Under the pieces are notes generated by a model. It was not told the DNA's origin. It saw nothing but the letters and a program-made list of their open reading frames with translations, and ran no database searches. Position numbers and translations under genes: made by a program. A stretch of 64,000 bases of DNA from Cellulophaga sp. Hel_I_12 (GTDB lineage: Bacteria > Bacteroidota > Bacteroidia > Flavobacteriales > Flavobacteriaceae). Shown in pieces: positions 46,555-64,000 of the stretch. Within the stretch, counting starts at the first letter, position 1; every line of letters begins with the position of its first letter. Where the stretch lies: assembly GCF_000799565.1 (NCBI RefSeq), contig NZ_JUHB01000001.1, forward strand, positions 3,967,127 through 4,031,126. The letters run 5' to 3'.

Positions 46555-46564
46555 TTGTGCCTAG

Positions 46565-47001
46565 GTTTTTTGAGTTCTGATTGTCAATGCTTGTCTATTT
46601 AGCGATATACTCACAATTCTGAACCCAACATTCAAAAGTCCGATTTCTAAATCAGTTAAGTTTAAGTATTAATCAGAAAATACAAAAGAGGAGTATATGG
46701 ATAGCATATATCGTGAAGCTTTTGACGTCACAACATTGACCCATTCTCTCCCCTTTTTTATAACTAGTATCGCGTTCAGTGCTGTGAGGTTATAGTCCTT
46801 CTTTTCAAGTTGTTGCGAACAAAAGAAACTAGTTGAAAAAAATTGTTCTCGTTACCAAAGTGTCATGGCTTTATTATGTAATAGTAAAAATCTATAAACA
46901 GTAGTGTTGCTATGTAAGATATTAGATGAACCCAAGCTGTCTTAGTTTTTATTTACTTCTGTATTGTTTTTAAGCTTATGGGCAACGAATTGTGATGTAA
47001 G
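46565..47001. other. gene-free stretch after an array-type element
   Basis: No ORF of note, RNA gene or strong hairpin in 437 bases before the DedA gene stop. It could be an emptied or decayed cassette, since an element boundary (GTTGTGCCTAG) opens it. Confidence 0.4.
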
Positions 47002-47697: not shown

Positions 47698-47775
47698 AGT
47701 TAGGCTGTGTTTAAAATAGTAGTTTTACTTAAGGCTTGTTCTTACGACCTTAAATATATAATGGGTTCGAATGCA

Positions 47776-48282: not shown

Positions 48283-48376
48283 TGTATTATGTTTTATGTT
48301 AGATTTAAAATAATAATAGTGTATCTGTGGGCTCAACAATAGAGCACAGATTTAAAATAAAAAAAGAGGAAGTTTT

Positions 48377-48745
48377 TTAAGTAAATAAATGAAATGGAAA
48401 GATGAGCGTCCTTGACGTGAGTTTGACGGAAATGGTTTTTACAATCTTTATATATAAAAGTTTGTAATCGTATGTGTCCGCTATGGGTAGTTGCTTCTGA
48501 TACTTTAAAAAAGGGTAAGGTATTTTTATGGTTTTAAAAGACCAATTTGGACGATGAGTATCTAAAAGATTATCTATTAGTAAGGCCTGATCATTGATGT
48601 TGTTATTTAGCGTAATAAGTTCTGATCGGCTCTCAAAATTTAGAGCAACTTCATCAACATGTGGTGGAGATAAGAAAAAAAGCCCTAAAAAAAGGCTACA
48701 AATAAAACACTTTAAACCAAGCATTTTCTCTAAATTAAGTTGCAA
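48377..48745 (-). CDS. small exported protein of unknown function
   Basis: A 122-residue protein with a hydrophobic leader (KCFICSLFLGLFFLSPP); the Met at residue 8 may be the true start. No recognised domain. It lies upstream of the membrane-anchored unknown (47776-48282), same strand, and is divergent from the PiT-like gene. Confidence 0.5.
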   Translation of the reverse strand: MQLNLEKMLGLKCFICSLFLGLFFLSPPHVDEVALNFESRSELITLNNNINDQALLIDNLLDTHRPNWSFKTIKIPYPFLKYQKQLPIADTYDYKLLYIKIVKTISVKLTSRTLIFPFHLFT

Positions 48746-48860
48746 ATTTACGTCAATTACATGTTAAAATATTCATAAAATAAATTAACAATATCTTAAT
48801 ATGGGTTTATTTTTTTAGATCGAAATACCGTTACATTTGTCCTCGCATATTATCTTCTTT

Positions 48861-49811
48861 ATGGAACTGGTCATTGGTTATATTGGCTTTATTATTGCGG
48901 CTTACTCCGTAATAGCTAACGATGTTATTCAAACACTTGGCACTTTTATTTCTTCAAATTTTAAAGTAAAATGGTGGTGGCTTTGGCTATTTGCTATTAG
49001 TATTTTATCGATTACACTTGTTTATGGATGGTATGTTAATGATGGCGATGTGTCTTATGGGAGATTGAGTGCTATCCCATTTCCCGAGAAATTAGAATGG
49101 TGGTATCTTTTAGCGCCAATCGCCCTATTGGCCATTACACGATTCGGAATTCCTGTAAGTACTACGTTTATGATTTTAAGTGTTTTTTCGTCGGGTATGG
49201 TAATAGAAAAAATGGTATTAAAATCGGTCTATGGCTATGCGATTTCTTTTGTTTTTGCAGTAGTGGTCTATGTTGCAATTTCGAGAAAATTTGAATCTAG
49301 TTTATCTTTGGACAAGCATGATAAAGATAAAAATAAGCATTATTGGTTAGTAGCGCAATGGTTTTCTACTGGATTTTTATGGTCTCAATGGCTGATTCAA
49401 GATTTTGCGAATATTTTTGTTTTTCTTCCACGAAAGCTCTCCATAGAACAGCTCATAATCTCTTTGTCCTGTATTGTTTTGATTATGGCCTACATATTCA
49501 GAAAACGCGGCGGAAGGATTCAGGAAATAGTTAATAAAAAATCGAATACGAAGAATATTCGTTCTGCCACCTTTATTGACTTAATCTATGGTACCTTCCT
49601 TTATGTTTTTGGTAACCTCAATTCGATTCCTATGAGCACTACTTGGGTCTTTATTGGAATTTTAGCGGGAAGAGAATTAGCGATCACTTACCTATTGAAT
49701 AAAAATAAAATAAAATACACCTACATCATCATTGCCAAAGATTTAGGTAAAGTAAATATTGGTCTTGTCGTGAGTTTAGTGATTGCATTTTTGATTCAGT
49801 ATTTAAAATAA
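48861..49811 (+). CDS. PiT-like inorganic phosphate transporter homologue
   Basis: A 316-residue membrane protein from ATG 48861 (MELVIGYIGF), chosen over 48837 because the first helix begins there. The PHO4-type duplicated signature is visible: VIANDVIQTLGTF and FGIPVSTTFMIL in the first half, FGNLNSIPMSTTWVFIGILAG in the second. PiT carriers move phosphate with H+ or Na+; the divergence here means another anion is possible. It is the only plus-strand gene between the island and the IS. Confidence 0.75.
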   Translation: MELVIGYIGFIIAAYSVIANDVIQTLGTFISSNFKVKWWWLWLFAISILSITLVYGWYVNDGDVSYGRLSAIPFPEKLEWWYLLAPIALLAITRFGIPVSTTFMILSVFSSGMVIEKMVLKSVYGYAISFVFAVVVYVAISRKFESSLSLDKHDKDKNKHYWLVAQWFSTGFLWSQWLIQDFANIFVFLPRKLSIEQLIISLSCIVLIMAYIFRKRGGRIQEIVNKKSNTKNIRSATFIDLIYGTFLYVFGNLNSIPMSTTWVFIGILAGRELAITYLLNKNKIKYTYIIIAKDLGKVNIGLVVSLVIAFLIQYLK

Positions 49812-49933
49812 TCGTTCCCTACAAAACTATTTAAATTAAAGTGAATTTTTTTCGGAGACTCACCGATGCTGTTCTTTGTAAATACTGGTTTTTTACGATC
49901 GGATTTTTTGAATTCTGTTAGCTGTTCGTTAAC

Positions 49934-50109
49934 GCAGATCGTTTGCACAAGATAAAGATTAGTGTCTACACTAAATTAGTTTCTAAGCTTGTTGCTAGTT
50001 ATTTTTTCTATTTTTTTATCAGGGCAAAATCTTTAAGATTTTGCTCACTTTGCAAATTTGCCCAGGCCTTTACATTTAGCACTTTTTACCCTATTTGCCA
50101 TAAACATTG
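49934..50109. repeat. array-type structured element (older subtype)
   Basis: Opens after TGTTCGTTAAC and closes at ATTG|TTAGCTGTAG. It contains a perfect internal hairpin GGGCAAAATCTTTAAGATTTTGCTC-like (GCAAAATC/GATTTTGC, about 50025-50043). Left and right ends carry the position-11 T and G seen in the other elements. It is paralogous to the element at 46378-46554. Confidence 0.72.
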
Positions 50110-50134
50110 TTAGCTGTAGCTCTTTTTTCATTCT

Positions 50135-51226
50135 TCATTTTACAAATTTTTCAAATGTTATACCATTGAATTTATATGCTCCATTTTTGTGGGTCCCAAG
50201 CCAAAGGTCGCCATTGTTGTCTTTGTAAATGCTGAACAAAGTAATGTCTTTTGAATTATCTTGAACAGCATAATGAGTAATTTTCGTTCCATCATATTTC
50301 CATACGCCATTACGGTAGGTTACAAACCACAAGTTATTATTTTCGTCTCTTACTGTTGATAGATACTCGTTCAAATCGCTCTCATTTTTCCCATCTAAAC
50401 CACCTATGCTTTCATGTCTTGTGTAAAATTTATTGCTTTTTAATGTTGCGCTGTCATAAACACTATAACGATATTCGGTATTGAACCAAAAGTCGCCATT
50501 TTCATCTTCAACAATTGACCGCACTCCATTAGAAACTTCTGTAGGTTCGTTAAAAATTTCCACAACGTCTTTTTCTAAAATCCAGTCAAATGATTTTCCA
50601 TTGTATCGGAACGCTCCTAATGCTCCTGTGCCAAACCAGACATTTCCTTTACTGTCTTTGTAAATGCTATATACTGTATATGGGTTTGGATAGTTTGGGT
50701 TGTTTAAAATATGGTCTTCTCCAAGTTTTGTCTTTGGTAGCTTTAGTTTGTATAAATAACTTCCATCGTATCTATAAACATATCCTGAATCCCAACCATC
50801 TTTAAACCACAAATCATTTGGTTCCAATTTCCAATTGCTTTTCAAATCATCTACTTTTAATAAATGGAAATTTTCACCGTCAGATTTAATAATGCCACTA
50901 CTTGTATTAAAGTAAATATTTCCTAAATGGTCTTCTTTAATTTCACCAATTCCGTTATTGGGCAAGCCGTTTTTAGTTGTGATATGAAGAATTTTTTTAC
51001 CGTCATACTTGTATATTCCATCTTCCGAACTTCCAAACCAATGATTGTTTTTTTTATCTTGATATACAAGCATTATATTTTCTCCAAGTTCCTTAACAGT
51101 TTCAACTTTTGTAATATCAATGATGCTCGTATTCTCTTTTTTGCTATTGACTTTCGAATTATTCTGTCCGTTGCACGAGGATAAAAAAGTTAATATGATT
51201 AAGTATAAAAGCAGTTTTAATTTCAT
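50135..51226 (-). CDS. two-component-regulator-like propeller lipoprotein
   Basis: A 363-residue lipoprotein (lipobox LTFLSSC) made of repeated propeller blades of the Reg_prop type: DHLGNIYFNTSSGIIK, DSKGNVWFGTGALGAF, DENGDFWFNTEYRYSV, DNNGDLWLGTHKNGAY. Such propellers normally form the sensor half of hybrid histidine kinases. Here there is no TM or kinase, so it may be a stand-alone surface or periplasmic binding protein. It lies between two structured array elements, as a single-gene cassette would. Confidence 0.83.
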   Translation of the reverse strand: MKLKLLLYLIILTFLSSCNGQNNSKVNSKKENTSIIDITKVETVKELGENIMLVYQDKKNNHWFGSSEDGIYKYDGKKILHITTKNGLPNNGIGEIKEDHLGNIYFNTSSGIIKSDGENFHLLKVDDLKSNWKLEPNDLWFKDGWDSGYVYRYDGSYLYKLKLPKTKLGEDHILNNPNYPNPYTVYSIYKDSKGNVWFGTGALGAFRYNGKSFDWILEKDVVEIFNEPTEVSNGVRSIVEDENGDFWFNTEYRYSVYDSATLKSNKFYTRHESIGGLDGKNESDLNEYLSTVRDENNNLWFVTYRNGVWKYDGTKITHYAVQDNSKDITLFSIYKDNNGDLWLGTHKNGAYKFNGITFEKFVK

Positions 51227-51274
51227 TGTCGGTCTGTTTTATGTTTACTGGGTTTTGCCAGGGTTGCTGCTAAT

Positions 51275-51394
51275 GGTTCGGCTATGAGTAGTTGCGCGGT
51301 TTAGCGATTAATTTTGCAAGTAAAAACCAAACTGAAAATCCGCAGAGATTTTCGAAAGTAGGTTTGGACCAGCAATTTATTTTATACGCTATTG
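51275..51394. repeat. array-type structured element (short subtype)
   Basis: Opens after TTGCTGCTAAT and continues GGTTCGGCTATGAGTAG; contains GAAAATCC…GGATTTTC-like hairpin (GAAAATC/GATTTTC near 51334-51355); closes TTTTATACGCTATTG. It mixes the left end of the long type with the right end of the short type. Confidence 0.65.
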
Positions 51395-51408
51395 TGCTTT
51401 CGTTATTT

Positions 51409-53128: not shown

Positions 53129-53369
53129 TTTTTTTGAAATGTCTTGTCCTGAAATATGGCTACAGGTTAAAATTGATTTTACGCTGTTTTTAAATATACC
53201 ATATTCGGTGTTTTATAGTGCAAAAAACGGGCATAGTATACCACCTACAGCGGATTAAAGTGATCATAGTGGAGCGGGTGAAAGTGAACCACTTGCGGCG
53301 GACGAAAGTGAACCACTAAAAATCGATTCTATTTGTAAAGCTTTAAATATCTTTTTATAAAAAGATATT

Positions 53370-54914
53370 ATGGCCAACAAACAAATAGAAATGCGAAAAA
53401 TAAAACAGATTTTCAAACTTTACAGTGAAGGAGTCAGTAAGCGTCAAATAAGCCTAATCACAGGGCTATCACGTAATACCATCACTAAATATATTGACTT
53501 TTTTAAGCGCTATGGGCTTACTAATTACGAAGTGTCTTCCATGACACTCGAGGAGCTGAACAGACTTTTTAAAACCGACCAAAAAGGTAAGAGCCAACAA
53601 CTATTGACTCTAGAAACATACTTTCCTTATTTCGACAAAGAACTGCGCAAAACGGGTGTAACCAAAGAGCTACTCTGGCAAGAGTATGCTTCCAAACATC
53701 CAGATGGTTACAAACTTTCCCAGTTTAGATATTGGTACCGGGAGTGGGCTAAAGAAGTGTCTCCAGTGATGCATTTTACACACAAAGCTGGCGATAAACT
53801 TTTTATTGATTTTACAGGTAAGAAGCTTTCCATCGTAGACCGTTACACAGGTGAGATACAAGATTTAGAAGTCTTTGTTTGTGTATTGGGAAGTAGCCAA
53901 TATACGTATGTTGAGGCTTGTGAGAGCCAAAAGAAAGAAGACTTTATAGCTTGTGTAGAAAATGCACTTTGGTTTTATGGCGGTGTACCACAAGCTTTAG
54001 TGCCCGATAACTTGAGGGCAGCAGTTACTAAAAGTAGTCGTTACGAACCGAAAGTAAATGAGACTTTTATAGATTTTGCTGAGCATTATGAAACGGCAGT
54101 ACTTCCAACTAGAGCCTACAGACCTAGAGATAAAGCCATCGTCGAAAATGCTGTACGTATCATATATACACGTGTCTTTGCGCCATTGCGTAACCAAACG
54201 ATCCATACTAAAGCTGCACTGAATAAGGCTATATTAGAACTTCTTAAAACCCATAACAGCACCTCTTTTAGGGGGCGTGAATATTCTCGCTATTCGTTAT
54301 TTGAAGAGATTGAAAAGCATCAGCTCAGACCATTGCCAGCAAAACGCTATGAGATTAAACGCTACGCTAATGCAACGGTTCATAAAAACAGCCATATTTA
54401 TTTTAGTAAGGACAAACACTATTATAGTCTGCCCTATCAGCATATAGGCAAGCGTATCAAAATGGTTTACTCAGATAGCGCAGTAGAGATTTACTACCAG
54501 CAGGAACTGCTTACGGTACATCCAAGAAACAAGCAAAAATATGGGTATAGCACGATAAAGGAACACATGCCTTCCCATCACCGCTTTATCAGCGAGTGGA
54601 GCAGTGAAAAATTCATTACCTGGGCAGAGCAAGTTGGTAATAATTGTAAGGTGTTAATCATTAACATATTAGAAAAGAAACAACACCCTGAGCAATCCTA
54701 CAAATCGTGTTTAGGCATATTGCACCTTACTAAAAAGGTAGGCAATACACGGCTAGATAATGCCTGTAAGCGAGCATTAGACTATGGAGCGCATAACTAC
54801 AATATTGTAGAGCGTATCCTTAAAAACGGCTGGGACACTTTAGATGAAGATATCGAAGATCAACCAGATATCCCAAACCATAGCAATATTAGAGGGAGCC
54901 ATTATTACAAATAA
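53370..54914 (+). CDS. istA: IS21-family transposase IstA
   Basis: A 514-residue transposase. An N-terminal HTH (GVSKRQISLITGLSRNTITKYI) is followed by a DDE integrase core: Asp in DKLFIDFTGK, Asp in ALVPDNLRAAV, Glu in KAIVENAVRI. A C-terminal beta-rich domain contains the IstA-typical KRYEIKRYANATVHKNSHIY. It performs strand transfer with its ATPase partner IstB. Compare the frameshifted copy at 63308, which lacks one C in the ALVPDN codons. Confidence 0.96.
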   Translation: MANKQIEMRKIKQIFKLYSEGVSKRQISLITGLSRNTITKYIDFFKRYGLTNYEVSSMTLEELNRLFKTDQKGKSQQLLTLETYFPYFDKELRKTGVTKELLWQEYASKHPDGYKLSQFRYWYREWAKEVSPVMHFTHKAGDKLFIDFTGKKLSIVDRYTGEIQDLEVFVCVLGSSQYTYVEACESQKKEDFIACVENALWFYGGVPQALVPDNLRAAVTKSSRYEPKVNETFIDFAEHYETAVLPTRAYRPRDKAIVENAVRIIYTRVFAPLRNQTIHTKAALNKAILELLKTHNSTSFRGREYSRYSLFEEIEKHQLRPLPAKRYEIKRYANATVHKNSHIYFSKDKHYYSLPYQHIGKRIKMVYSDSAVEIYYQQELLTVHPRNKQKYGYSTIKEHMPSHHRFISEWSSEKFITWAEQVGNNCKVLIINILEKKQHPEQSYKSCLGILHLTKKVGNTRLDNACKRALDYGAHNYNIVERILKNGWDTLDEDIEDQPDIPNHSNIRGSHYYK

Positions 54915-54930
54915 ATTTAAACCAAAAACA

Positions 54931-55662
54931 ATGAATAAACAGACATTAGAACACATGAAACAACTAAGGCTATACGGCATGTACAGAGCCTTTGACAGCA
55001 GTTTATCACCACAAAGTATAAACTACACAAATGATGAACTCATCGCATATCTGCTCCAAAGCGAATGGGATGACCGCCAAAACAGAAAGATAGAACGGTT
55101 AACAAAAGCGGCACGTTTTAGATATAGTGCTGTTATGGAAGCTATCGATTTTGATGCTTCAAGACAGCTAGATAAAAATCAAATACAACGCTTTGCTAGC
55201 TGTGAGTTTATAAAGCAAAAACAGAATATCCTTATCACAGGAAGTACAGGTGCTGGAAAAAGCTATATAGCATCAGCTATTGGTCATCAGGCGTGTTCAT
55301 TGGGATATAAAGTCATGTATTATAACACGAATAAACTTTTTACCATGCTTAAAACATCAAAAGCAGATGGCTCTTATTTAAAACAAATCAATAAACTAGA
55401 AAAACAAGACCTACTGATTATAGATGACTTTGGACTCAAAGCTTTAGATGCTATAAATAGGCACTCTTTTATGGAAATTATTGAAGATAGACACGGAGAA
55501 CACAGTATTATTATAGCTTCACAATTACCAGTAGAAGCATGGCATGAAATTATAGGAGAACAAACCATCGCAGATGCCATTTTAGACCGCCTTGTACATA
55601 ATGCACACAGAATACATATTAAAGGAGAATCGATGCGTAAAAAAATGAAAAATAAAGACTAA
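54931..55662 (+). CDS. istB: IS21-family AAA+ ATPase IstB
   Basis: A 243-residue DnaC-like ATPase. ATG 54931 (MNKQTLEHMKQLRLYGM) is the family start, 16 bp after istA; the frame is open from 54844 but that start lies inside istA. Walker A is GSTGAGKSYIAS, Walker B LLIIDDFGL, and the C-terminal AILDRLVHNAHRI is the sensor region. IstB assembles on target DNA and activates IstA. Confidence 0.96.
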   Translation: MNKQTLEHMKQLRLYGMYRAFDSSLSPQSINYTNDELIAYLLQSEWDDRQNRKIERLTKAARFRYSAVMEAIDFDASRQLDKNQIQRFASCEFIKQKQNILITGSTGAGKSYIASAIGHQACSLGYKVMYYNTNKLFTMLKTSKADGSYLKQINKLEKQDLLIIDDFGLKALDAINRHSFMEIIEDRHGEHSIIIASQLPVEAWHEIIGEQTIADAILDRLVHNAHRIHIKGESMRKKMKNKD

Positions 55663-55745
55663 ATTTAACCACAAATGAATCGATTTTGAGCACTTACTTT
55701 GCTATGCTCACTTTCATCCGCCGCAAGTGGTTCAATTTGACCGCC

Positions 55746-56255
55746 CTATCCAGTCAATTCTAATTTCTTTTTTAAATGGTCATAAAGTCTTTTATCCATT
55801 CTATCCAATAATAAATGACCGATTGTATCTAAAAGTTCTGTGTAACGAAGATTAAATTGATTATAAAAAAGTTCGTTGAAGTCGGGATATTCTTTCAGCC
55901 AATTTGGTAATAACTGAACAGGTATTAAGAGTACTTTTGAGTCTTCTTCTGTTATAGCGAATACCTTACTTGGAGTGTTTTTTAATGCAGCGTAGAATGT
56001 CATAACACAGCTTTGAGCTGATTCGATATAATAAAGTAACAATTCTTTCTCTTCAAATCTAGAATATACTTTTATCAGACCATTAATAACAATGGGTAAA
56101 ACTTTGACATACTGCTGTTCCCTTAAAATTTCAGTTCCTTTTGAAAATTCCTTAATGGTAGATTCTTGCAGGATTTTTTCAACCAAATCAGGTTTTAAAA
56201 AAGATAATATTCTTCTGTCAAGTTCCATTTTACGTCTTTTTCTTAGGTTGCACAC
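55746..56255 (-). pseudogene. Crp/Fnr-family regulator truncated by IS21
   Basis: A 169-residue frame with a complete cyclic-nucleotide-binding-like domain (SKGTEILREQQYVKVLPIVINGLIKVY, ELLLYYIESAQSCVMTFYAAL) and the dimerisation helix (RYTELLDTIGHLLLDRMDKRLYDHL). It ends at LELTG where the C-terminal winged HTH should begin. The stop is supplied at the IS21 right end, so the DNA-binding domain was lost by the insertion. It was probably the gene of an array cassette: the flank before the first full element reads TTGCACACAAC with the position-11 T. Confidence 0.85.
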
Positions 56256-56258
56256 AAC

Positions 56259-56442
56259 GCTTCAGCTATGAGTAGTGCGGAGGCAAGGAAACCTTTTTGT
56301 TTCCGTCTACGCACGTAGCAAAAGCTTTTTGTTTTGTTTTATTTTTTTTCATCAGAGCAAAATCCTAAAGATTTTGCGGATACTTTAAATATACACAAAC
56401 CATTGAATTAATCACCAAACTCCGCATTACTTATAGCTATTG
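56259..56442. repeat. array element E1 (long type)
   Basis: 184 bp. Arms AGCTATGAGTAGTGCGGAG (56264-56282) and CTCCGCATTACTTATAGCT (56420-56438) pair at 17 of 19, the rest being G/T. Inside are two further hairpins, GGAAAC/GTTTCC and GCAAAATC/GATTTTGC. Practically identical to E3. Bounded by AAC on the left and ATTG|TT on the right. Confidence 0.85.
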
Positions 56443-56455
56443 TTGTAAAACGTTT

Positions 56456-57085
56456 TTATTTTATTCCGAATGGTTTAGCTTTTAATTCCGTTAACCATTC
56501 CGTTCCATATTTCTTATTTAAATAATCGAAAATCATTTGATTGTTTTCTGTTACTTTTTTAAATGATAAAGGGTCAATCACGCAATTCTCTTTTATAAGT
56601 CCAATTCCATATTTTTCCTTAAATGCCAAATATTCTTCTGGAATTGAACCGTCGATGCCATGTATTATAAAATTTAGCGTTCCGTCCGAAATCCGTATTT
56701 TTATTTGTTCTTCGGTCAAATTTGTGTCCAAATTCATAGGGAAAGAGTAAATTCCACTACTATAACTTAATTCAGTTTTTTCCATTAGCCGAATAGTAAT
56801 TGTATTTTTTCTATTACTTATACGTGCAGGATAGAAAGTGTAAGCAGTAAAGTCATCTGAAACGAAGCTGAATAGATATTTACCTTTTTCCGGTAAAGTG
56901 ATTTTAAAACTCTCAGCGTTATTGACTTCGATTTTGTGATTTGAATTAATGATTGTAAATTCTCCTGAAGTAAATTTCTTATTCGTTAAGTTCTCAAAAG
57001 TTACTTCGGCTATTATTTCTTTTTCGGTTGCTTTCGAAATAGTACAAATCAAAGCTAAAATCAGAGTTATAAATATTTTTTTCAT
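56456..57085 (-). CDS. secreted protein of unknown function, cassette copy A
   Basis: A 209-residue protein with a clear signal peptide (KKIFITLILALICTISKA). The mature part has a beta-rich N-terminal domain. A C-terminal stretch, IPEEYLAFKEKYGIGLIKEN followed by DYLNKKYGTEWL, I have no named family for. It is duplicated at 58149-58778 with one amino-acid change (Lys37 to Glu). Its unit is flanked by GTTGTAAAACGTT on the left and AATGTTTTACAAC on the right, complementary except the position-11 G/T. Single-gene cassette. Confidence 0.8.
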   Translation of the reverse strand: MKKIFITLILALICTISKATEKEIIAEVTFENLTNKKFTSGEFTIINSNHKIEVNNAESFKITLPEKGKYLFSFVSDDFTAYTFYPARISNRKNTITIRLMEKTELSYSSGIYSFPMNLDTNLTEEQIKIRISDGTLNFIIHGIDGSIPEEYLAFKEKYGIGLIKENCVIDPLSFKKVTENNQMIFDYLNKKYGTEWLTELKAKPFGIK

Positions 57086-57202
57086 AGTTATTAATTTAAA
57101 TCAAATATTAAATTACTATTTCTATAAAACAATTCATAATTAGTGAATAACCTTTTTCGTTTAGTAAAACTGCTTTTTGATTGAGCCAAATGTTTTACAA
57201 CG

Positions 57203-57384
57203 CTTCAGCTATGAGTAGTGCGGAGGCAAGGAAACCTTTTTGTTTCCGTCTTCGCACGTAGCAAAAGCTTTTTGTTTTGATTTATATTTTTTCGCCAGAG
57301 CAAAATCCAAAAGATTTTGCGGACATAGTAAATATACGCTTACTTTAAATTAAACACCAAACTCCGCATTACTTATAGGTATTG
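57203..57384. repeat. array element E2 (long type)
   Basis: 182 bp with the same arms and internal hairpins as E1, but slightly different sequence (GCCAGAGCAAAATCCAAAAG region). Close to E4 and E8. It separates the copy A cassette from the DMP19 cassette. Confidence 0.85.
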
Positions 57385-57394
57385 TTGTAACACG

Positions 57395-57865
57395 TTATTT
57401 TTCGAAATCAGCTTTGTTTTTTAGCACATATGAAATAAGTAAATCGGTCAAATCATCTTGATATTCGTAAAATTCCGTATCGCATTTCTCCCAATTTTCT
57501 TCCGCTTTTTCTTCTATTAATTCCAGTTTATTCTGTCTCTCAGTTCTATCTTTTGGCACATTTCCATTATCAAATTCAGAATTTGCGTTCTCAACAATTT
57601 TTGCTGTTTTTTCTGCTCCGATTTCCAAAAGTGCATTTAGAGTTTCTTGGCTAAAATCTCCACTGGAATTAAAATAGAATTGGTTAAATCCTCCATTATT
57701 TATTTCACGTTCTAAATTCTCTACAAAAAGAAAAGTTCGTTGTGAAGAATTCAGTTTCTCAATCTTTTCTCCGTATTCAGATTTTTCATTCAGATATGTG
57801 TCAATTTCCATAACAATCATATCTCGTCTTTCTATTTTTAGTGTTTTGTCAAGATTAAATTCCAT
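57395..57865 (-). CDS. DMP19 (DUF4375) family protein
   Basis: A 156-residue acidic cytoplasmic protein with the DMP19 core: VENLEREINNGGFNQFYFNS, GDFSQETLNALLEIGAEKTA and NVPKDRTERQNKLE. DMP19-type proteins are small acidic proteins; some are DNA mimics that block repressor binding, but in most bacteria the role is unknown. It is the sole gene of its cassette, whose ends GTTGTAACACGTTA (57384) and TAATGTGTTACAAC (57939) match at 13 of 14 with the position-11 mismatch. Confidence 0.85.
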   Translation of the reverse strand: MEFNLDKTLKIERRDMIVMEIDTYLNEKSEYGEKIEKLNSSQRTFLFVENLEREINNGGFNQFYFNSSGDFSQETLNALLEIGAEKTAKIVENANSEFDNGNVPKDRTERQNKLELIEEKAEENWEKCDTEFYEYQDDLTDLLISYVLKNKADFEK

Positions 57866-57952
57866 TTGCGAATTACAATTTGTAAAAAATATTACTGTTA
57901 AGAATAGTAAAATTTTATTCCTAGCAGAATTTTTCTTTAATGTGTTACAACG

Positions 57953-58135
57953 CTTCAGCTATGAGTAGTGCGGAGGCAAGGAAACCTTTTTGTTTCCGTC
58001 TACGCACGTAGCAAAAGCTTTTTGTTTTGTTTTATTTTTTTTCATCAGAGCAAAATCCTAAAGATTTTGCGGATACTTTAAATATACACAAACCATTGAA
58101 TTAATCACCAAACTCCGCATTACTTATAGCTATTG
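57953..58135. repeat. array element E3 (long type)
   Basis: 183 bp, essentially identical to E1, in front of the second copy of the secreted-protein cassette. The E1-cassette and E3-cassette pairs are offset by 1,693-1,694 bp, so element and cassette were duplicated together. Confidence 0.85.
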
Positions 58136-58148
58136 TTGTAAAACGTTT

Positions 58149-58778
58149 TTATTTTATTCCGAATGGTTTAGCTTTTAATTCCGTTAACCATTCCGTTCCA
58201 TATTTCTTATTTAAATAATCGAAAATCATTTGATTGTTTTCTGTTACTTTTTTAAATGATAAAGGGTCAATCACGCAATTCTCTTTTATAAGTCCAATTC
58301 CATATTTTTCCTTAAATGCCAAATATTCTTCTGGAATTGAACCGTCGATGCCATGTATTATAAAATTTAGCGTTCCGTCCGAAATCCGTATTTTTATTTG
58401 TTCTTCGGTCAAATTTGTGTCCAAATTCATAGGGAAAGAGTAAATTCCACTACTATAACTTAATTCAGTTTTTTCCATTAGCCGAATAGTAATTGTATTT
58501 TTTCTATTACTTATACGTGCAGGATAGAAAGTGTAAGCAGTAAAGTCATCTGAAACGAAGCTGAATAGATATTTACCTTTTTCCGGTAAAGTGATTTTAA
58601 AACTCTCAGCGTTATTGACTTCGATTTTGTGATTTGAATTAATGATTGTAAATTCTCCTGAAGTAAATTCCTTATTCGTTAAGTTCTCAAAAGTTACTTC
58701 GGCTATTATTTCTTTTTCGGTTGCTTTCGAAATAGTACAAATCAAAGCTAAAATCAGAGTTATAAATATTTTTTTCAT
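58149..58778 (-). CDS. secreted protein of unknown function, cassette copy B
   Basis: A 209-residue near-duplicate of the protein at 56456-57085 (Glu instead of Lys at residue 37) with the same signal peptide. The cassette ends (GTTGTAAAAC, 58135; AATGTTTTACAAC, 58882-58894) are also the same. A few base changes outside the gene (for example around 58800-58830) show the duplication is recent but not immediate. Both copies look intact, so dosage or ongoing divergence is possible. Confidence 0.8.
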   Translation of the reverse strand: MKKIFITLILALICTISKATEKEIIAEVTFENLTNKEFTSGEFTIINSNHKIEVNNAESFKITLPEKGKYLFSFVSDDFTAYTFYPARISNRKNTITIRLMEKTELSYSSGIYSFPMNLDTNLTEEQIKIRISDGTLNFIIHGIDGSIPEEYLAFKEKYGIGLIKENCVIDPLSFKKVTENNQMIFDYLNKKYGTEWLTELKAKPFGIK

Positions 58779-58894
58779 AGTTATTAATTTAAATCAAATA
58801 TTAAATTACTATTTCTAGAAAACAATTCACATTTAGTGAATAACCTTTTTTGTTTAGTAAAACTGCTTTTTGATTGAGCTAAATGTTTTACAAC

Positions 58895-59077
58895 GTTTAA
58901 GCTATGAGTAGTGCGGAGGCAAGGAAACCTTTTTGTTTCCGTCTTCGCACGTAGCAAAAGCTTTTTGTTTTGATTTATATTTTTTCGCCAGAGCAAAATC
59001 CAAAAGATTTTGCGGACATAGTAAATATACGCTTACTTTAAATTAAACACCAAACTCCGCATTACTTATAGGTATTG
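58895..59077. repeat. array element E4 (long type)
   Basis: 183 bp, close to E2 (TTTAAGCTATGAG instead of CTTCAGCTATGAG at the left arm). Its left flank is GTTTTACAAC and its right flank TTACCTACAG: the two are not complementary to each other but each matches the far end of its own neighbouring gene unit. Confidence 0.85.
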
Positions 59078-59081
59078 TTAC

Positions 59082-59570
59082 CTACAGTTTTTTATGCGTA
59101 ATCTTATCGGTCAGTATTAATTTTTGCACCTTTTTAATCAGTGATGATATTTTAAATCGCGCGATTAATTCGATTATTAATGAGTAAATCAGTCCGAAAG
59201 TCGGCATAATTAAAAACTCGACTTTGCTAAATCCGTTCATAGCTAATTGATATACAGCAATTGTTAAAGTCAGTCCGACAAAAAATATTCCAAACCAAAA
59301 TTGCATCTTATAAGTAATTCCGTTAATCCTTTTTAGAGTTAGTTTGCATTCGGTTCCATTTTCATTTGTATTTACCGCATTTGCAATAAGTTTCACTAAC
59401 GGCCCTAAATTTGGAGTAAAAGCGAAAAATGATAAATTTCCATAGAGTTCTATTCCTCCGTCGTCAGAAAATCCTCCTGCAATATTGTTCCGTCCTATTT
59501 CTGAATTAATTATTTCAATAATGCTGTTAGCCGAATTGTTAAGGTTATATACTTTTGTTTGGTCGTTCAC
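59082..59570 (-). CDS. membrane protein of unknown function (cassette)
   Basis: About 162 residues from a GTG start at 59570 (VNDQTKVYNLNN). An ATG at 59630 is in frame, but it lies inside element E5, beyond the cassette boundary at 59595, so I think it is not native. A soluble N-terminal half precedes two TM helices (FWFGIFFVGLTLTIAVY, FLIMPTFGLIYSLIIELIA). The stop TAG falls inside the left cassette end GTTACCTACAG. Ends pair at 10 of 11 (59077-59087 with 59585-59595). No family recognised. Confidence 0.65.
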   Translation of the reverse strand: MNDQTKVYNLNNSANSIIEIINSEIGRNNIAGGFSDDGGIELYGNLSFFAFTPNLGPLVKLIANAVNTNENGTECKLTLKRINGITYKMQFWFGIFFVGLTLTIAVYQLAMNGFSKVEFLIMPTFGLIYSLIIELIARFKISSLIKKVQKLILTDKITHKKL

Positions 59571-59595
59571 AGTGTTATTTGAAATTGTAGGTAAC

Positions 59596-59777
59596 GGTTT
59601 GTATATGAAACGTAGCGTGCAAAAAGACACAGAAGTTTCGGATTATACACAAGCCAGATTTTTAAATTTTCTTTTTATCTTAATTTCTCAAAAAGCCAAA
59701 TTTAAAAATTTGGCGATCTTCGAAAATACACAAAAACCTCTCGAAAAGCCTATAATAGCTATGTTTTATATACGTTG
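59596..59777. repeat. array element E5 (divergent long type)
   Basis: 182 bp with different primary sequence: left GGTTTGTATATGAAACG, internal hairpin GCCAAATTT/AAATTTGGC (near 59695), right TTTTATATACGTTG. The same length and layout as E1-E4 with changed, still paired bases argues for selection on structure. Confidence 0.78.
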
Positions 59778-59792
59778 TTGTAAACAGTTTTT

Positions 59793-60344
59793 TTATATTT
59801 CTTCATCATATCCGAACCAATGGTTAAAACATTTAACTTTTTCAGATTCTATTTCAATGAATTTGTTTTTCGTTAAATCTATTTTCCACACTTTTAAGAT
59901 ATGGTTTTTGTCAAAATATTCTTTGTCTTGATTTTTTGCTATTCCGAATATGAATTTTTCGTTAGATTTGTCGGCCATCTTACAATCAGTCGGTTCAGAG
60001 AACAGTTTTGATTTGTCTGCAATCAATTGAACTTCGTCTAATATTTTAAAATTCACTTTCGAAGGATTATCTCTAATAATCTGTTCCAAAACCAGTACTT
60101 GTATGCTATCTTTCTGGAGGTATGAAAGTGCTTTGTCAGTACCGTCCAAAACCATTCCAACAATTTCAGTAAATCCTTTGTATTTATCCAACTCCGTTAT
60201 TTTTCGATAAACAGTTTGGTCTTCATTTTCTATTAATAGAATTTCACTTTTTTTGTTAGTTTCAGAAACGGGTTGTTTCTTACTCTCTTTACAACTTAAA
60301 GTCAGAATAATTATTGAAATTGCTATTAAGTTTCTCGTTTTCAT
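59793..60344 (-). CDS. lipoprotein of unknown function (cassette)
   Basis: A 183-residue lipoprotein (lipobox ILTLSC) with a Lys/Ser-rich linker and a ~140-residue domain (LDKYKGFTEIVGMVLDGTDK … CFNHWFGYDEE). No family recognised. The cassette ends are GTTGTAAACAG (59777-59787) and TTGTTTACAAC (60348-60358), complementary except the position-11 G/T. It is the only gene in its unit. Confidence 0.72.
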   Translation of the reverse strand: MKTRNLIAISIIILTLSCKESKKQPVSETNKKSEILLIENEDQTVYRKITELDKYKGFTEIVGMVLDGTDKALSYLQKDSIQVLVLEQIIRDNPSKVNFKILDEVQLIADKSKLFSEPTDCKMADKSNEKFIFGIAKNQDKEYFDKNHILKVWKIDLTKNKFIEIESEKVKCFNHWFGYDEEI

Positions 60345-60358
60345 AAATTGTTTACAAC

Positions 60359-60541
60359 GGTTCGGCTAAGCGTAGTGCGGTGGTAAGGAAACTTTTCGTT
60401 TCCGTCTGCGCACGAAGCTAAAGCTTATTGTTTAGTTTTATTTTTTCTTTTCCAAAGCTAAATCCATAAGATTTAGCGACTTCATAAATATACACAGACC
60501 TTTCTATTTAGCCCTAAAGTCCGAATTACGTTTAGGTGTTG
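60359..60541. repeat. array element E6 (long type variant)
   Basis: 183 bp: left GGTTCGGCTAAGCGTAGTGCG, hairpins GGAAACTTTTCGTTTCC and GCTAAATC/GATTTAGC (about 60461-60481), right CCGAATTACGTTTAGGTGTTG. The second hairpin differs from E1 by compensatory changes (A to T paired with T to A). Confidence 0.8.
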
Positions 60542-60551
60542 TTGTAAAACG

Positions 60552-61109
60552 TTATTCTTTGGGCTCCCAATTGAGGTCAATTTCCTTTTCTGGATTTATT
60601 ACAATATTATCGTAATCATAGGTTACAACAGAATCTGTATCATTATGGTATTTATTATCGTACGCAAGAGTAAATGCTATTACAATTAAAGGGTCAATTT
60701 CATATTTTTCTAACTTTATAAGATACTTGTCCTCTCCGAGTATTTTTTTGTGATTTTTTGAAATTATGCCAATGTGTTTTTCATTTAAGAATATTGCTAT
60801 TGCATTACTTTTTTGTTCATGAAAATATATAGTCCCTTTTGAAATTCGGATGTTATAGGAAATTGCTGATTCACTTCGAATTTCTATTGAGTTACTTAAG
60901 CCATAATTGATTGAGTAGTTTAAGAAATCTGTTAAATTCGGTTCTCTTTTTACAGATAATAGTTCGTAGTTGTCCAAGTCCTCTAACCCAATTTGTGAAT
61001 AAAATGAGAACGGCTTGGACTTAGCATAATACATTAAATTATTATCAACCAATATTTCATATCGGTCAAAGAATATATTCCATCTTTTTTGAAAAATCCT
61101 TATTTCCAT
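60552..61109 (-). CDS. protein of unknown function (cassette)
   Basis: About 185 residues from ATG 61109 (MEIRIFQKRWNIFFDRYEIL). The frame is open to an ATG at 61175, but that part is element E7 sequence, outside the cassette boundary at 61139. No signal peptide or TM. The beta-rich first half (YEILVDNNLMYYAKSKPFSF) faintly resembles LURP-one/scramblase-type folds; I would not assign it. Ends GTTGTAAAACGTTA (60541) and TAATGTTTTACAAC (61126-61139) pair at 13 of 14. Confidence 0.68.
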   Translation of the reverse strand: MEIRIFQKRWNIFFDRYEILVDNNLMYYAKSKPFSFYSQIGLEDLDNYELLSVKREPNLTDFLNYSINYGLSNSIEIRSESAISYNIRISKGTIYFHEQKSNAIAIFLNEKHIGIISKNHKKILGEDKYLIKLEKYEIDPLIVIAFTLAYDNKYHNDTDSVVTYDYDNIVINPEKEIDLNWEPKE

Positions 61110-61139
61110 GAATTGGTTCTTTTTATAATGTTTTACAAC

Positions 61140-61327
61140 GTTGCGGCTATGGCACGTAGGGCAGGTGATAAGCACTTATCTTTCCGCCAAGCGCGTAGCC
61201 AAAGCTTTTGCATTTTGTTTTTTATTTTATCTACTCTAAAAGCCCAAATCAAAAGATTTGGGGGACATCGTAAACAAGACCAAGCCAATAGATTCAGCAC
61301 TTAGCGCTCTATTTGCTATAGCCATTG
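61140..61327. repeat. array element E7 (long type variant)
   Basis: 188 bp: left GTTGCGGCTATGGCACGTAGGGC, hairpins GATAAG/CTTATC and CCCAAATC/GATTTGGG (about 61240-61261), right GCGCTCTATTTGCTATAGCCATTG. Both hairpins are re-paired versions of those in E1. Confidence 0.8.
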
Positions 61328-61343
61328 TTATCTTTAGTGCTTT

Positions 61344-61655
61344 TTACGCAACCTTGAATTCCGAGTCATTCATTTGTACACTGAACTTTATATTTGCCTT
61401 TAGTGCGTTAAACACTTTTAAAATAGTTTCAATCGTTACGTTTTTTGCGCTTCGCTCCAGTTTAGAAATCTTGTGACTTTGAACTCCAATCAATTCACCA
61501 AGTTGTTCTTGGGTCAATTTCCGTTCTTTTCGCACAGACTTAATCATTTCGCCAAAACCTCCATTCGCAAATCGAATTCATACTTGCCCTATCCGCCGTT
61601 CGATTTTTCCAATGTCCTTGTCCTTCATTTGTTCAAGGGTCATCATTTTCATCTT
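61344..61655 (-). pseudogene. higA: HigA-like antitoxin with broken N-terminal reading frame
   Basis: The C-terminal 67 residues (61344-61547) are a clear XRE HTH antitoxin: TQEQLGELIGVQSHKISKLE, then NVTIETILKVFNALKA. Upstream, MKMMTLEQMKDKDIGKI (from 61655) starts the normal family N-terminus but meets a TGA. The expected KYEFDLRMEVL segment is in another frame. Restoring one base at three places (near 61608, 61591 and 61558) would give one continuous frame. The net loss of three bases means both ends are in the same frame. Either decayed, or a sequence-quality problem, or translated from the internal ATG 61547. The toxin gene overlaps its 5' end. Confidence 0.72.
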
Positions 61656-62017
61656 TTATTCTTTGTTGCCATAACTTTATTTTTATTGCTCGAAATATTC
61701 CGTCCCGAATCTGCTTTGCTTTTTTCGATTTCAGCTTTAGGAACCTTGTCCGTTTTTTTGACCATTCCATGCGTAGAAATCACAAGCGTTTCGGTTTTTC
61801 CAGTCCTGTCCCAAAATGCGAAAAGTCGGTATTGAAGTCCTCCATATTTTGTTCTAAACTCCCAAATGTCGTCCGTTAGTTTTTTGAACAATTTCGGGTC
61901 AAGTCCAAATGTGGCCTTGTCTAGATTATAGTAAATCTTCGCTTTTGCTTTCTTGTCGACCTTTGACATAAAATCAATAGCCTGTTCAAGAAAAACGACT
62001 TCAAATCTTTTCTCCAT
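61649..62017 (-). CDS. higB: HigB-like (RelE/ParE superfamily) toxin
   Basis: A 122-residue Gp49-like toxin: RFEVVFLEQAIDFMSKVDKK, KLTDDIWEFRTKYGGLQYRL (the DIWEFR…YR motif) and HGMVKKTDKVPKAEI. RelE-superfamily toxins are ribosome-dependent mRNA nucleases. Toxin-first order and a 7-bp overlap with the antitoxin are typical for higBA. TA pairs are classic stabilising cargo in integron arrays. The cassette ends GTTATCTTTAGTGCT (61327) and AGCATTAAAGATAAC (62094-62108) pair at 14 of 15. Confidence 0.88.
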   Translation of the reverse strand: MEKRFEVVFLEQAIDFMSKVDKKAKAKIYYNLDKATFGLDPKLFKKLTDDIWEFRTKYGGLQYRLFAFWDRTGKTETLVISTHGMVKKTDKVPKAEIEKSKADSGRNISSNKNKVMATKNKR

Positions 62018-62108
62018 TCTGTTTATGTGCCCATTTATAAGACAAATATAAATAAAAAAGTTGAATTATATGGAAACTTTTATATTTTTGGTCAGCATTA
62101 AAGATAAC

Positions 62109-62291
62109 GCTTCAGCTATGAGTAGTGCGGAGGCAAGGAAACCTTTTTGTTTCCGTCTTCGCACGTAGCAAAAGCTTTTTGTTTTGATTTATATTTTTTC
62201 GCCAGAGCAAAATCGAAAAGATTTTGCGGACATAGTAAATATACGCTTACTTTAAATTAAACACCAAACTCCGCATTACTTATAGGTATTG
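62109..62291. repeat. array element E8 (long type)
   Basis: 183 bp, nearly the same as E2 (internal hairpin GCAAAATCGAAAAGATTTTGC-like). Left flank AAAGATAAC belongs to the higBA unit; right flank TTGTAAAACGTTTT belongs to the following lipoprotein unit. Confidence 0.85.
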
Positions 62292-62391
62292 TTGTAAAAC
62301 GTTTTTTTCGTAACAATTCCACTTCTATATTACACAAACCATTTAAAAGTCCTTTTGCGTAATTTTCGTCAATTCAGCCGGCATAACGTTT

Positions 62392-62883
62392 TTATTCAAA
62401 TAACTTTTCACTAACTCTTTTTACCATTTCTTTGTCCATTTTTTCAGGTAAACAAACTAAGTTAGGACCCATAACATTACCGAGAGCTAAAATTCCATAT
62501 TCTTTATTAAATAAAATCGGACCAGTTCCATCGGTAATTGGTTCAATCAATTCGTACTTTTTAAATGGTAATTCTGATAATTCTAAAATTTCAAATTCTG
62601 AATTATTAATTGGTTCAAAATTCATAAAACTGAAGGATAAATTCTCAGATTTTAATTCGTAAGTTAAATCAATGTTTCTTTCAGAATCTTCAATATCATC
62701 ATAATGATATTTCCATAATTCAGTCTCTCTTTCAAGAGTCATTATACATTTTCTAAGTTTTTGAGAATTTCCAGGATTAATAAATAAATCACGATTTGCA
62801 AAAGTCGTTTTCGAAACATTTTCGCAACTCTCTGAAATCAATATCATCAGAACTAAAATTAATATGTTGATGGTTTTTTTCAA
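62392..62883 (-). CDS. lipoprotein of unknown function (cassette)
   Basis: A 163-residue lipoprotein (lipobox LISESC) with an extracytoplasmic domain (LTYELKSENLSFSFMNFEPI … GNVMGPNLVCLPEKMDKE). No family recognised. Its unit is bounded by GTTGTAAAACGTTTT (62291) and AAAATGTTTTACAAC (62882-62896), 14 of 15 complementary. About 100 bases to the left of the stop are non-coding inside the cassette. Confidence 0.72.
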   Translation of the reverse strand: MKKTINILILVLMILISESCENVSKTTFANRDLFINPGNSQKLRKCIMTLERETELWKYHYDDIEDSERNIDLTYELKSENLSFSFMNFEPINNSEFEILELSELPFKKYELIEPITDGTGPILFNKEYGILALGNVMGPNLVCLPEKMDKEMVKRVSEKLFE

Positions 62884-62896
62884 AATGTTTTACAAC

Positions 62897-63014
62897 GTTT
62901 ATGTATAAGATTAGTGGCGTTTTTAATCACCTAATCTAGCAAATAATTACTAGATAGAAAATCCGCAAGGATTTTCGTAAGTATGCGAGGACTAGCCATT
63001 AATTTTATACGGTG
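62897..63014. repeat. array element E9 (short type)
   Basis: 118 bp: left GTTTATGTATAAGATTAGTGGC, hairpin GAAAATCC/GGATTTTC (about 62957-62977), right GCCATTAATTTTATACGGTGTTG. Same family as the elements at 51275 and 52240, so the short and long types coexist in one array. Confidence 0.78.
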
Positions 63015-63038
63015 TTGTGTGTAGTGTTTTATGCGTTT

Positions 63039-63156
63039 TTATTTTATCAGTTTAAATTGGTCAATTCCGATTTCAAACACAATTTTGTCATCTATCTCAA
63101 TCTGTTTTCCATTCAGGTCGTAAAATTCAACGAAAACATTGTTTTCATCAATTACT
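63039..63156 (-). pseudogene. 3' fragment of a cassette gene cut by the second IS21 copy
   Basis: The minus-strand frame runs from the IS boundary through NVFVEFYDLNGKQIEI to a stop at 63039 (…FKLIK). Only about 39 C-terminal residues remain; the family is not recognisable. The cassette's left end GTTGTGTGTAG (63014-63024) has the expected G at position 11. The right end is beyond the IS. Confidence 0.7.
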
Positions 63157-64000
63157 TGCAAAAAACGGGCATAGTATACCACCTACAGCGGATTAAAGTG
63201 ATCATAGTGGAGCGGGTGAAAGTGAACCACTTGCGGCGGACGAAAGTGAACCACTAAAAATCGATTCTATTTGTAAAGCTTTAAATATCTTTTTATAAAA
63301 AGATATTATGGCCAACAAACAAATAGAAATGCGAAAAATAAAACAGATTTTCAAACTTTACAGTGAAGGAGTCAGTAAGCGTCAAATAAGCCTAATCACA
63401 GGGCTATCACGTAATACCATCACTAAATATATTGACTTTTTTAAGCGCTATGGGCTTACTAATTACGAAGTGTCTTCCATGACACTCGAGGAGCTGAACA
63501 GACTTTTTAAAACCGACCAAAAAGGTAAGAGCCAACAACTATTGACTCTAGAAACATACTTTCCTTATTTCGACAAAGAACTGCGCAAAACGGGTGTAAC
63601 CAAAGAGCTACTCTGGCAAGAGTATGCTTCCAAACATCCAGATGGTTACAAACTTTCCCAGTTTAGATATTGGTACCGGGAGTGGGCTAAAGAAGTGTCT
63701 CCAGTGATGCATTTTACACACAAAGCTGGCGATAAACTTTTTATTGATTTTACAGGTAAGAAGCTTTCCATCGTAGACCGTTACACAGGTGAGATACAAG
63801 ATTTAGAAGTCTTTGTTTGTGTATTGGGAAGTAGCCAATATACGTATGTTGAGGCTTGTGAGAGCCAAAAGAAAGAAGACTTTATAGCTTGTGTAGAAAA
63901 TGCACTTTGGTTTTATGGCGGTGTACCACAAGCTTTAGTGCCGATAACTTGAGGGCAGCAGTTACTAAAAGTAGTCGTTACGAACCGAAAGTAAATGAGA
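63157..64000 (+). mobile_element. second IS21-family copy, same orientation, runs off the window
   Basis: Identical to the first copy from TGCAAAAAACGGG onward at a constant offset of 9,938 bp until one C is lost near 63942. Two direct copies bracket 55.75-63.16 kb, giving a composite-transposon-like layout. Confidence 0.9.
63308..64000 (+). pseudogene. istA: istA copy with single-base deletion (partial)
   Basis: Matches the first IstA for 211 residues up to GGVPQALVP. There TGCCCGATAA has become TGCCGATAA, giving a stop after IT (63952). The lost part includes the second catalytic Asp and the Glu, so this IstA cannot be active unless the deletion is a sequencing error. The gene continues past the window end. 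Confidence 0.9.

What the first reader, a model, noticed from the sequence alone, without database searches (positions are those of the whole stretch)
56259..63024. Integron-like gene-cassette array in a Bacteroidota genome without a visible integron integrase
Eight complete gene units alternate with nine structured elements (eight of 182-188 bp, one of 118 bp), all genes on one strand. The decisive sign is that the two ends of each unit are complementary to each other: GTTGTAAAAC…GTTTTACAAC, GTTGTAACAC…GTGTTACAAC, GTTACCTACA…TGTAGGTAAC, GTTGTAAACA…TGTTTACAAC, GTTATCTTTA…TAAAGATAAC. The two flanks of one element often do not match each other (for example E4, E5, E7). That is what integron recombination leaves behind, since a cassette's own R' half sits at one end and its R'' half at the other. 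Target duplications of mobile repeats would instead be direct and flank the element. Content (unknown secreted proteins, DMP19, a TA pair) is also integron-like. Yet the elements are longer than usual attC sites and the ends do not fit GTTRRRY. This suggests an undescribed or poorly described cassette system.
Basis: partly seen in the sequence, partly recalled or inferred. Interest (0 to 1): 0.95.

Follow-up and report, generated by a model that had tools for sequence, protein, structure and literature searches.

The report
Flavobacterial integron-like system without IntI
This bacterium carries a 76-kilobase row of about 80 small gene units separated by folding DNA sites, likely assembled unit by unit by a site-specific recombinase that is not the known integron enzyme, and the same sites occur in most related genera sampled, so a common gene-capture system has probably been overlooked.

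Summary
The window ends a circular chromosome and the array continues across the contig join: 80 elements (63 of about 206 bp, 17 of about 141 bp), one orientation, 76.5 kb. In 77 of 79 units the cassette-specific six bases after GTT at one end are complementary to those before AAC at the other; the two flanks of one element match in 1 of 81.

The missing recombinase exists: 375 aa, at the array head (C1:71034-72161). A palindrome and the GTT that opens cassette 1 follow its stop. That cassette recurs 57 kb away, 99.7% identical, joined instead to an element; the base before GTT already differs. The enzyme lacks the IntI-specific insertion and falls outside the IntI clade.

The elements show strong covariation, and the non-coding strand folds better in 74 of 77, as for attC. 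They occur in 168 of 199 Flavobacteriaceae genomes, one per genus. It works like an integron but fails two tests for a classical one (IntI domain, GTTRRRY core). Recombination itself is untested.

The parts
56247..56453 (-). attC-like element (long form), last regular element of the array
   Evidence: CM R1 185.6 bits
56456..57085 (-). cassette gene, 209 aa, no Pfam match; whole cassette 99.4% identical to the one at 58149-58778
57190..57395 (-). attC-like element (long form)
   Evidence: CM R1 183.3 bits
57395..57865 (-). cassette gene, DMP19-like protein
   Evidence: PF14300 E 4.1e-29
57940..58146 (-). attC-like element (long form)
   Evidence: CM R1 187.8 bits
58149..58778 (-). cassette gene, second copy of the 209-aa protein
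58883..59088 (-). attC-like element (long form)
   Evidence: CM R1 184.3 bits
59082..59570 (-). cassette gene, 162 aa, no Pfam match; its stop lies inside the element
59584..59788 (-). attC-like element (long form)
   Evidence: CM R1 145.2 bits
59793..60344 (-). cassette gene, 183 aa, no Pfam match
60347..60552 (-). attC-like element (long form)
   Evidence: CM R1 200.2 bits
60552..61109 (-). cassette gene, 185 aa, no Pfam match
61128..61338 (-). attC-like element (long form)
   Evidence: CM R1 152.7 bits
61344..61547 (-). HTH_3 protein, antitoxin-like (role inferred from its neighbour)
   Evidence: PF01381 35.6 bits
61649..62017 (-). Gp49/DUF891 protein, toxin-like, in the same cassette
   Evidence: PF05973 E 1.6e-14
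62097..62302 (-). attC-like element (long form)
   Evidence: CM R1 182.7 bits
62392..62883 (-). cassette gene, 163 aa, no Pfam match
62885..63025 (-). attC-like element, short form (the 118-bp element of the finding)
   Evidence: CM R1 48.6 bits, E 5.4e-9; tags match on both sides
63026..64000 (-). cassette that runs across the contig join to the element at C1:1931-2140 and is split by an IS21 copy; the rest of the array, the attI-like site and the recombinase (C1:71034-72161) follow there, outside window coordinates

Best explanation
The stretch is the tail of an 80-site gene-cassette array, which a tyrosine recombinase without the IntI domain, encoded at the head of the array, likely builds by inserting circular one-gene cassettes at a palindromic attI-like site. 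Shown by sequence: each cassette starts at GTT, mostly carries its gene on one strand and ends with its own element; the six bases after GTT are complementary to the six before AAC of its own element; whole cassettes recur elsewhere as units; and one cassette is found joined once to the attI-like site and once to an attC-like element, the base before GTT already differing. Inferred: as in integrons, the non-coding (bottom) strand of the element folds into a hairpin that the recombinase recognises. In the circle the cassette's own two ends would pair and lengthen the stem; after insertion each end faces a neighbour's end and the six base pairs are mostly lost. The circle would therefore be a better substrate than the inserted copy, which would favour insertion over excision and could explain the very long array.
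For: 77 of 79 units with 6/6 matching end tags, 1 of 81 for the two flanks of one element, shuffle maximum 10. Same rule in relatives, scanned without the short elements: 54 of 79 units (40 of 45 under 900 bp) in seven genomes of the genus; 14 of 34 (10 of 12 under 1,000 bp) in 20 recombinase regions of the family; 16 of 27 (13 of 14 under 1,000 bp) in 80 named loci; the last two sets overlap (six contigs of equal length). 26 pairs of whole-cassette copies, 92-100% identical, 19 of them aligned end to end; downstream flank unrelated (at most 30 of 60 bases) in 25 of 26. Cassette 1 at attI (C1:70994) and its copy at C1:13564: 99.7% over 2,471 aligned bp, no identical base directly before GTT. 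Recombinase stop 39 bp before cassette 1, same strand. Palindrome followed 1-7 bp later by GTT-R-N5-(A/C)-A after 56 of 75 recombinases, against 1 of 75 in shuffles and 1 of 75 upstream. In named loci 99 elements lie downstream on the recombinase's strand, 2 on the other strand, 3 upstream. Structure: 94.7% of cells paired, 23 of 39 pairs with changes on both sides, 0 of 500 shuffles as high. Circle form folds better than inserted form in 77 of 77, mean -5.9 kcal/mol; bottom better than top in 74 of 77. R235, K260, H324, R327, H350 and Y359 are invariant in 33 aligned proteins (that these are the catalytic residues is family knowledge).
Against: No recombination, circle or cleavage has been observed; all is sequence inference. 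Three of 80 tested units fail and three further neighbouring pairs had no anchor. Of 48 named loci with at least 2 kb downstream, 13 show no element, and the first element's tag is found at the attI-like site in 12 of 33 (10 of 15 when that element is within 1.5 kb). Of the 168 Flavobacteriaceae genomes with elements, 49 have no recombinase of this family at E <= 1e-60 (my count), so other enzymes may act there or the arrays are stranded; five genomes have the recombinase family and no element. 19 of 75 loci miss the palindrome-GTT pattern, and palindromes alone are also common upstream of the gene (19 of 75 with score 9 or more, against 46 of 75 downstream). In 8 of 77 cassettes the longest ORF is on the other strand, and 7 have no ORF of 50 aa on the cassette strand. 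The empty-site test at one isolated cassette was inconclusive. The structure was derived from the same alignment on which it was counted.
Confidence: 0.88

Rival explanations
1. It is an ordinary chromosomal integron whose IntI and attC are merely divergent members of the known family.
For: Gene order, cassette anatomy, GTT boundary, bottom-strand folding and an attI-like site are all integron-like. NCBIfam names the enzyme family 'site-specific tyrosine recombinase/integron integrase' (NF040815, 235.4 bits over a cut-off of 220).
Against: TIGR02249 integron integrase scores 193.5 against a cut-off of 265 and in two stretches; the IntI-specific insertion is absent; IntI forms its own clade, 100/100; GTTRRRY holds in 4 of 77 cassettes; TIGR02249 passes its cut-off in 84 of 296 genomes of the phylum but in none of the 30 of this family.
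Confidence: 0.08
2. The elements are dispersed palindromic repeats (REP or MITE type) that inserted between genes independently of them.
For: Elements are repetitive, structured and also occur away from the array.
Against: Unit ends, not element flanks, are complementary (77 of 79 against 1 of 81); genes travel together with their downstream element; the best match of all 80 elements is on one strand; arrays follow a recombinase in several genera.
Confidence: 0.02
3. The array was built by another enzyme (for example XerC/D or a second recombinase subfamily), and the adjacent recombinase is only a passenger at the array head.
For: 49 of 168 element-bearing genomes lack this family at the threshold used (my count); other tyrosine recombinase subfamilies are common in the genus.
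Against: The recombinase is followed by the palindrome-GTT pattern in 56 of 75 loci, and elements lie downstream of it on its strand (99 of 104); all 34 of 199 genomes with a member scoring 460 bits or more have elements (my count; Fisher p 0.003).
Confidence: 0.07

Closest known systems
Chromosomal integrons (superintegrons) with IntI, such as that of Vibrio cholerae (their features here are recalled)
   Same: Long single-orientation array of small cassettes, mostly of unknown function with toxin-antitoxin pairs; recombinase and attI at one end; exchange at GTT; folding non-coding strand of attC.
   Different: Recombinase lacks the IntI-specific domain, has an extra N-terminal part of about 100 aa and is transcribed towards the array; attC-like sites of 206 and 141 bp; cassette-specific 6-base core instead of GTTRRRY; attI is a palindrome downstream of the recombinase gene.
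CALIN elements (attC clusters lacking an integrase; PMC8618304, passages seen)
   Same: The window seen alone looks like one.
   Different: A recombinase and attI-like site head the array, and the sites do not have the classical core.
XerA and archaeal Xer recombinases (PDB 5hxy, 4a8e)
   Same: Closest solved structures by sequence and by predicted fold.
   Different: Recalled: Xer enzymes resolve chromosome dimers at dif and have no cassette arrays. The matches cover residues 103-375 only, not the N-terminal part.
Integron-like subgroup of simple tyrosine recombinases (Smyshlyaev et al. 2021, PMC8138268, passages seen)
   Same: That paper groups integron integrases with relatives in which the insertion is not fully conserved.
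   Different: The passages seen name no cassette arrays for insertion-less members.

Membership tests
Classical integron (IntI) | Tyrosine recombinase with the IntI-specific additional domain | tested here: not met
   IntI4 chain has about 43 extra residues between query 278 and 306; six IntI proteins show the insertion, the recombinases of this group do not (other parts of that output were cut); TIGR02249 below cut-off
Classical integron (IntI) | Recombinase falls in the IntI clade | tested here: not met
   IntI 6 rows 100/100, this group 20 rows 87/90, Xer 7 rows 100/99; long-branch warnings apply
Classical integron (IntI) | attC core GTTRRRY / RYYYAAC | tested here: not met
   4 of 77 cassettes
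Classical integron (IntI) | attC sites conserved in structure, bottom strand folds best | tested here: met
   (folding only; use by the enzyme is not shown)
Classical integron (IntI) | Cassettes bounded at GTT, own ends complementary, moved as units | tested here: met
Classical integron (IntI) | attI next to the integrase, first cassette inserted there | tested here: met
   but palindromic and on the 3' side of the gene
Classical integron (IntI) | Promoter driving the first cassettes | not tested
   no promoter search was made
Classical integron (IntI) | Recombination activity, circular cassettes | not testable with these tools
   needs experiments
REP/MITE repeats | Insertion independent of neighbouring genes, flanks of one copy alike | tested here: not met
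   flanks of one element match in 1 of 81; genes move with elements

The most novel reading that the evidence does not exclude
Flavobacteriaceae own an integron system of their own, present in most genera, with a separate tyrosine recombinase lineage lacking the IntI domain, palindromic attI and 141/206-bp attC sites. Each cassette carries a six-base barcode that pairs with itself only in the circle, so that insertion disarms the site and ratchets cassettes into long arrays.
Probability: 0.75. Interest if true: 0.95.

Novelty: new variant of a known kind. Interest (0 to 1): 0.92.

Why it matters
Integron surveys define integrons by the IntI domain and an attC model. In the passages seen, integrons are reported from Bacteroidota (PMC8618304, PMC9668308, PMC2426708), but the complete ones named are in Salinibacter ruber, Chlorobi and Ignavibacteriae (PMC9024848), none in Flavobacteriaceae. 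A second enzyme lineage doing the same job would show that the extra IntI domain is not needed for cassette capture. It would also open a large pool of unread cassette genes in a major bacterial family, and make the question of how structure-specific DNA capture evolved directly testable.

Tried and rejected
Single-sequence fold of the recombinase: pLDDT 36.7, not used. Empty-site test at an isolated cassette (L037:9063-9928): in 17 relatives the match ends with the upstream gene, so the site cannot be compared; inconclusive. Rfam: no match over a gathering score in 54000-64000. Long-element-only scan: 50 of 63 units, replaced by the covariance-model scan that includes short forms. Of the 94 model matches, ten were left out: nine weaker opposite-strand matches lying on kept elements, and one weak match (E 0.0058) at an element truncated next to an IS21 copy. 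The scans were not repeated with the short forms. Matches of R1 outside the family (88 of 296 genomes of the phylum, relatives included, many about 140 bp) were not followed up; some may be ordinary attC sites of true integrons. A first ORF count that cut units at the element was replaced by one that lets genes end inside the element. The N-terminal part of the recombinase was not searched alone; the fold comparison covered residues 103-375.
Full report
1. The observation. The nine elements and eight units are in the window as described. A DNA search of the same genome returned 40 listed matches (40 of 112 candidates were scored), mostly at C1:1938-68747, and showed that the window is the end of a 4,031,126-bp single contig. 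An IS21 copy runs across the contig join, 99.96% identical to two other copies, so the chromosome is circular and the array continues. A covariance model built here (R1, 44 elements of seven genomes) gave 94 matches at E <= 0.01 over the window and C1:1-100000; 84 were kept as elements, all on the + strand, and ten were left out (nine weaker opposite-strand matches lying on kept elements, one weak match at a truncated element). Of the 84, 80 lie between C1:68742 and window 56247, a span of 76.5 kb: 63 long (median 206 bp) and 17 short (about 141 bp).

2. The end rule. Written along the genes, each cassette starts GTT-N6-(A/C)-A-(T/G) and ends A-C-(T/G)-N6'-AAC plus the body of its element (typical forms; variants occur). 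Of 83 neighbouring pairs, 3 had no anchor and 80 were tested: 77 have 6 of 6 complementary bases (77 of 79 within the array). The two flanks of one element match in 1 of 81. Ten thousand shuffles gave a mean of 2.9 and a maximum of 10. There are 42 distinct tags among the 77; the first base is always a purine. GTTRRRY is met in 4 of 77. The rule also holds in relatives: 54 of 79 units (40 of 45 under 900 bp), own flanks 2 of 88.

3. Cassettes as mobile units. Among 96 cassettes with perfect ends from the window's genome and relatives of the genus, 26 pairs are copies that align over more than 85% of their length at 92-100% identity, 19 of them end to end; just beyond the final GTT at most 30 of 60 bases agree in 25 of 26 (the exception is two consecutive cassettes copied together). 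Upstream flanks can look alike, because each cassette follows an element and some elements are of one type. Seven pairs are between genomes of different species; the best, G001 and G012, is 98.8% identical over 926 bp. 69 of 77 cassettes have their longest ORF on the cassette strand, 16 stops lie inside the element, the median start is 23 bases after GTT, and 7 have no ORF of 50 aa on that strand. Sixty of 61 distinct cassette proteins were scanned: 31 Pfam families are matched, each of the 25 shown by one protein, among them DMP19, a GNAT acetyltransferase, SUKH, Gp49 and several DUFs; ten PADLOC models are matched by one member each.

4. The recombinase and its site. At C1:71034-72161 lies a 375-aa tyrosine recombinase on the cassette strand. 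Its stop is followed by GGATATACGCAATAGTGCATATCC, AATT and then GTTGTACCACAT, 39 bp after the gene, whose tag matches the first element downstream. The first cassette, which holds an IS3-like transposase gene pair, recurs at C1:13564: 99.7% identity over 2,471 aligned bp. The bases directly before GTT differ (AATT at the palindrome, AAAC at the element); the alignment program runs 21 bases further up because the two site ends resemble each other (CATATCCAATT, CATAGCCCAAAC). So one cassette has been joined both to the palindrome and to an element, with the joint at GTT. In the genus, the tag of the first detected element lies 42-56 bp after the end of the recombinase match in G008, G009, G010 and G012, but at 929 and 1,948 bp in G001 and G016, where a nearer palindrome and GTT exist.

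5. Generality. Of 359 stretches encoding relatives in named genomes the best 80 were kept; 75 had 90 bases or more after the stop: 56 show a palindrome followed by the GTT start, against 1 of 75 shuffled and 1 of 75 upstream. Palindromes alone (score 9 or more) are found in 46 of 75 downstream, 19 of 75 upstream and 0 of 75 shuffled. Elements lie downstream on the same strand 99 times, on the opposite strand 2 times, upstream 3 times; 35 of 48 loci with 2 kb or more have one. In 20 recombinase regions fetched from 19 genomes (four of them with under 4 kb), 71 elements lie on the recombinase's strand and 4 on the other, and 14 of 34 units match (10 of 12 under 1,000 bp); this set overlaps with the named one. 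In 199 Flavobacteriaceae genomes, one per genus, 168 have elements and 124 have a recombinase of the family at E <= 1e-60; 119 have both, 49 elements only, 5 recombinase only, 26 neither (my count from the two listings, 11 unlisted negatives taken by elimination; Fisher p 1.3e-8).

6. Structure of the element. On the bottom strand 39 pairs are 94.7% formed; 23 pairs show changes on both sides; the covariation score is 0.401 against 0.135 shuffled and at most 0.084 when slid. The structure came from the same alignment, so some lean is built in. Conserved G-T pairs (43 of 44 at two places of the arms; 72 of 77 at the core) pair on the bottom strand only and would be A-C mismatches on the top strand. 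In 44 non-redundant elements the two arms alone fold better on the bottom strand in 43. Over 77 cassettes the bottom strand of the circle form folds better than the inserted form in all 77 (mean -5.9 kcal/mol) and better than the top strand of the circle form in 74.

8. Mechanism. I read the system as an integron by function: circular cassettes, bottom-strand hairpins, exchange at GTT, insertion at attI. The sequence facts above are shown; circles, strand choice and enzyme activity are inferred. The cassette barcode, lost after insertion because neighbours differ (1 adjacent pair shares a tag), is my addition and untested.

9. Literature. Ten searches of the held library were made, and passages of seven papers were seen. 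No listing or passage seen reports such arrays in Flavobacteriaceae. Integrons in Bacteroidota are mentioned in PMC8618304, PMC9668308 and PMC2426708; the IntegronFinder 2.0 paper (PMC9024848) names complete ones in Salinibacter ruber, Chlorobi and Ignavibacteriae; a Tenacibaculum genome run through that program had none (PMC10013915). Most subscription papers and all preprints are missing from the library, so prior description elsewhere is possible.

Noticed in passing
window 53301-55745, 63239-64000 (continuing to C1:1682), C1:43728-46172: Three nearly identical IS21 copies: one beyond the array's 3' end, one across the contig join inside a cassette, one inside the array beside a truncated element; the copy at the window end differs by one gap and its transposase frame is broken there.
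   Followed up: partly
window 41514-51402: Four scattered, weaker elements beyond the 3' end of the array; of four neighbouring pairs three had no anchor and one failed the tag rule: probably decayed cassettes.
   Followed up: partly
G000:C1:1744379-1744584 and 1748485-1749561: A 34%-identical paralogue of the recombinase lies about 4 kb from an isolated element, in the orientation that an array head would have.
   Followed up: no
L036, L037, L038, L039: Small satellite groups of 1-5 elements elsewhere in the genome; in 7 of 9 the matching cassette start lies upstream, suggesting off-site insertion.
   Followed up: partly
L107 (G008:C1:3902750-3903873): In one relative, at the head of a region with 43 elements on one strand, the recombinase is split into two reading frames.
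   Followed up: no
named loci L187-L266: 32 of 80 loci have under 2 kb of contig after the recombinase, as expected if the arrays break short-read assemblies.
   Followed up: no
recombinase residues 1-100: N-terminal part predicted with strands and helices of its own; most listed homologues carry PF22823 in precomputed annotations, but the Pfam copy used here gave no match.
   Followed up: no
other families of the phylum: R1 finds many sites of about 140 bp outside Flavobacteriaceae; whether they belong to this system or to true integrons is open.
   Followed up: no
window 55746-56255: A gene with a weak cNMP-binding match (27 bits, just under the cut-off of 27.5) sits right after the last regular element, between it and the IS21.
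   Followed up: no
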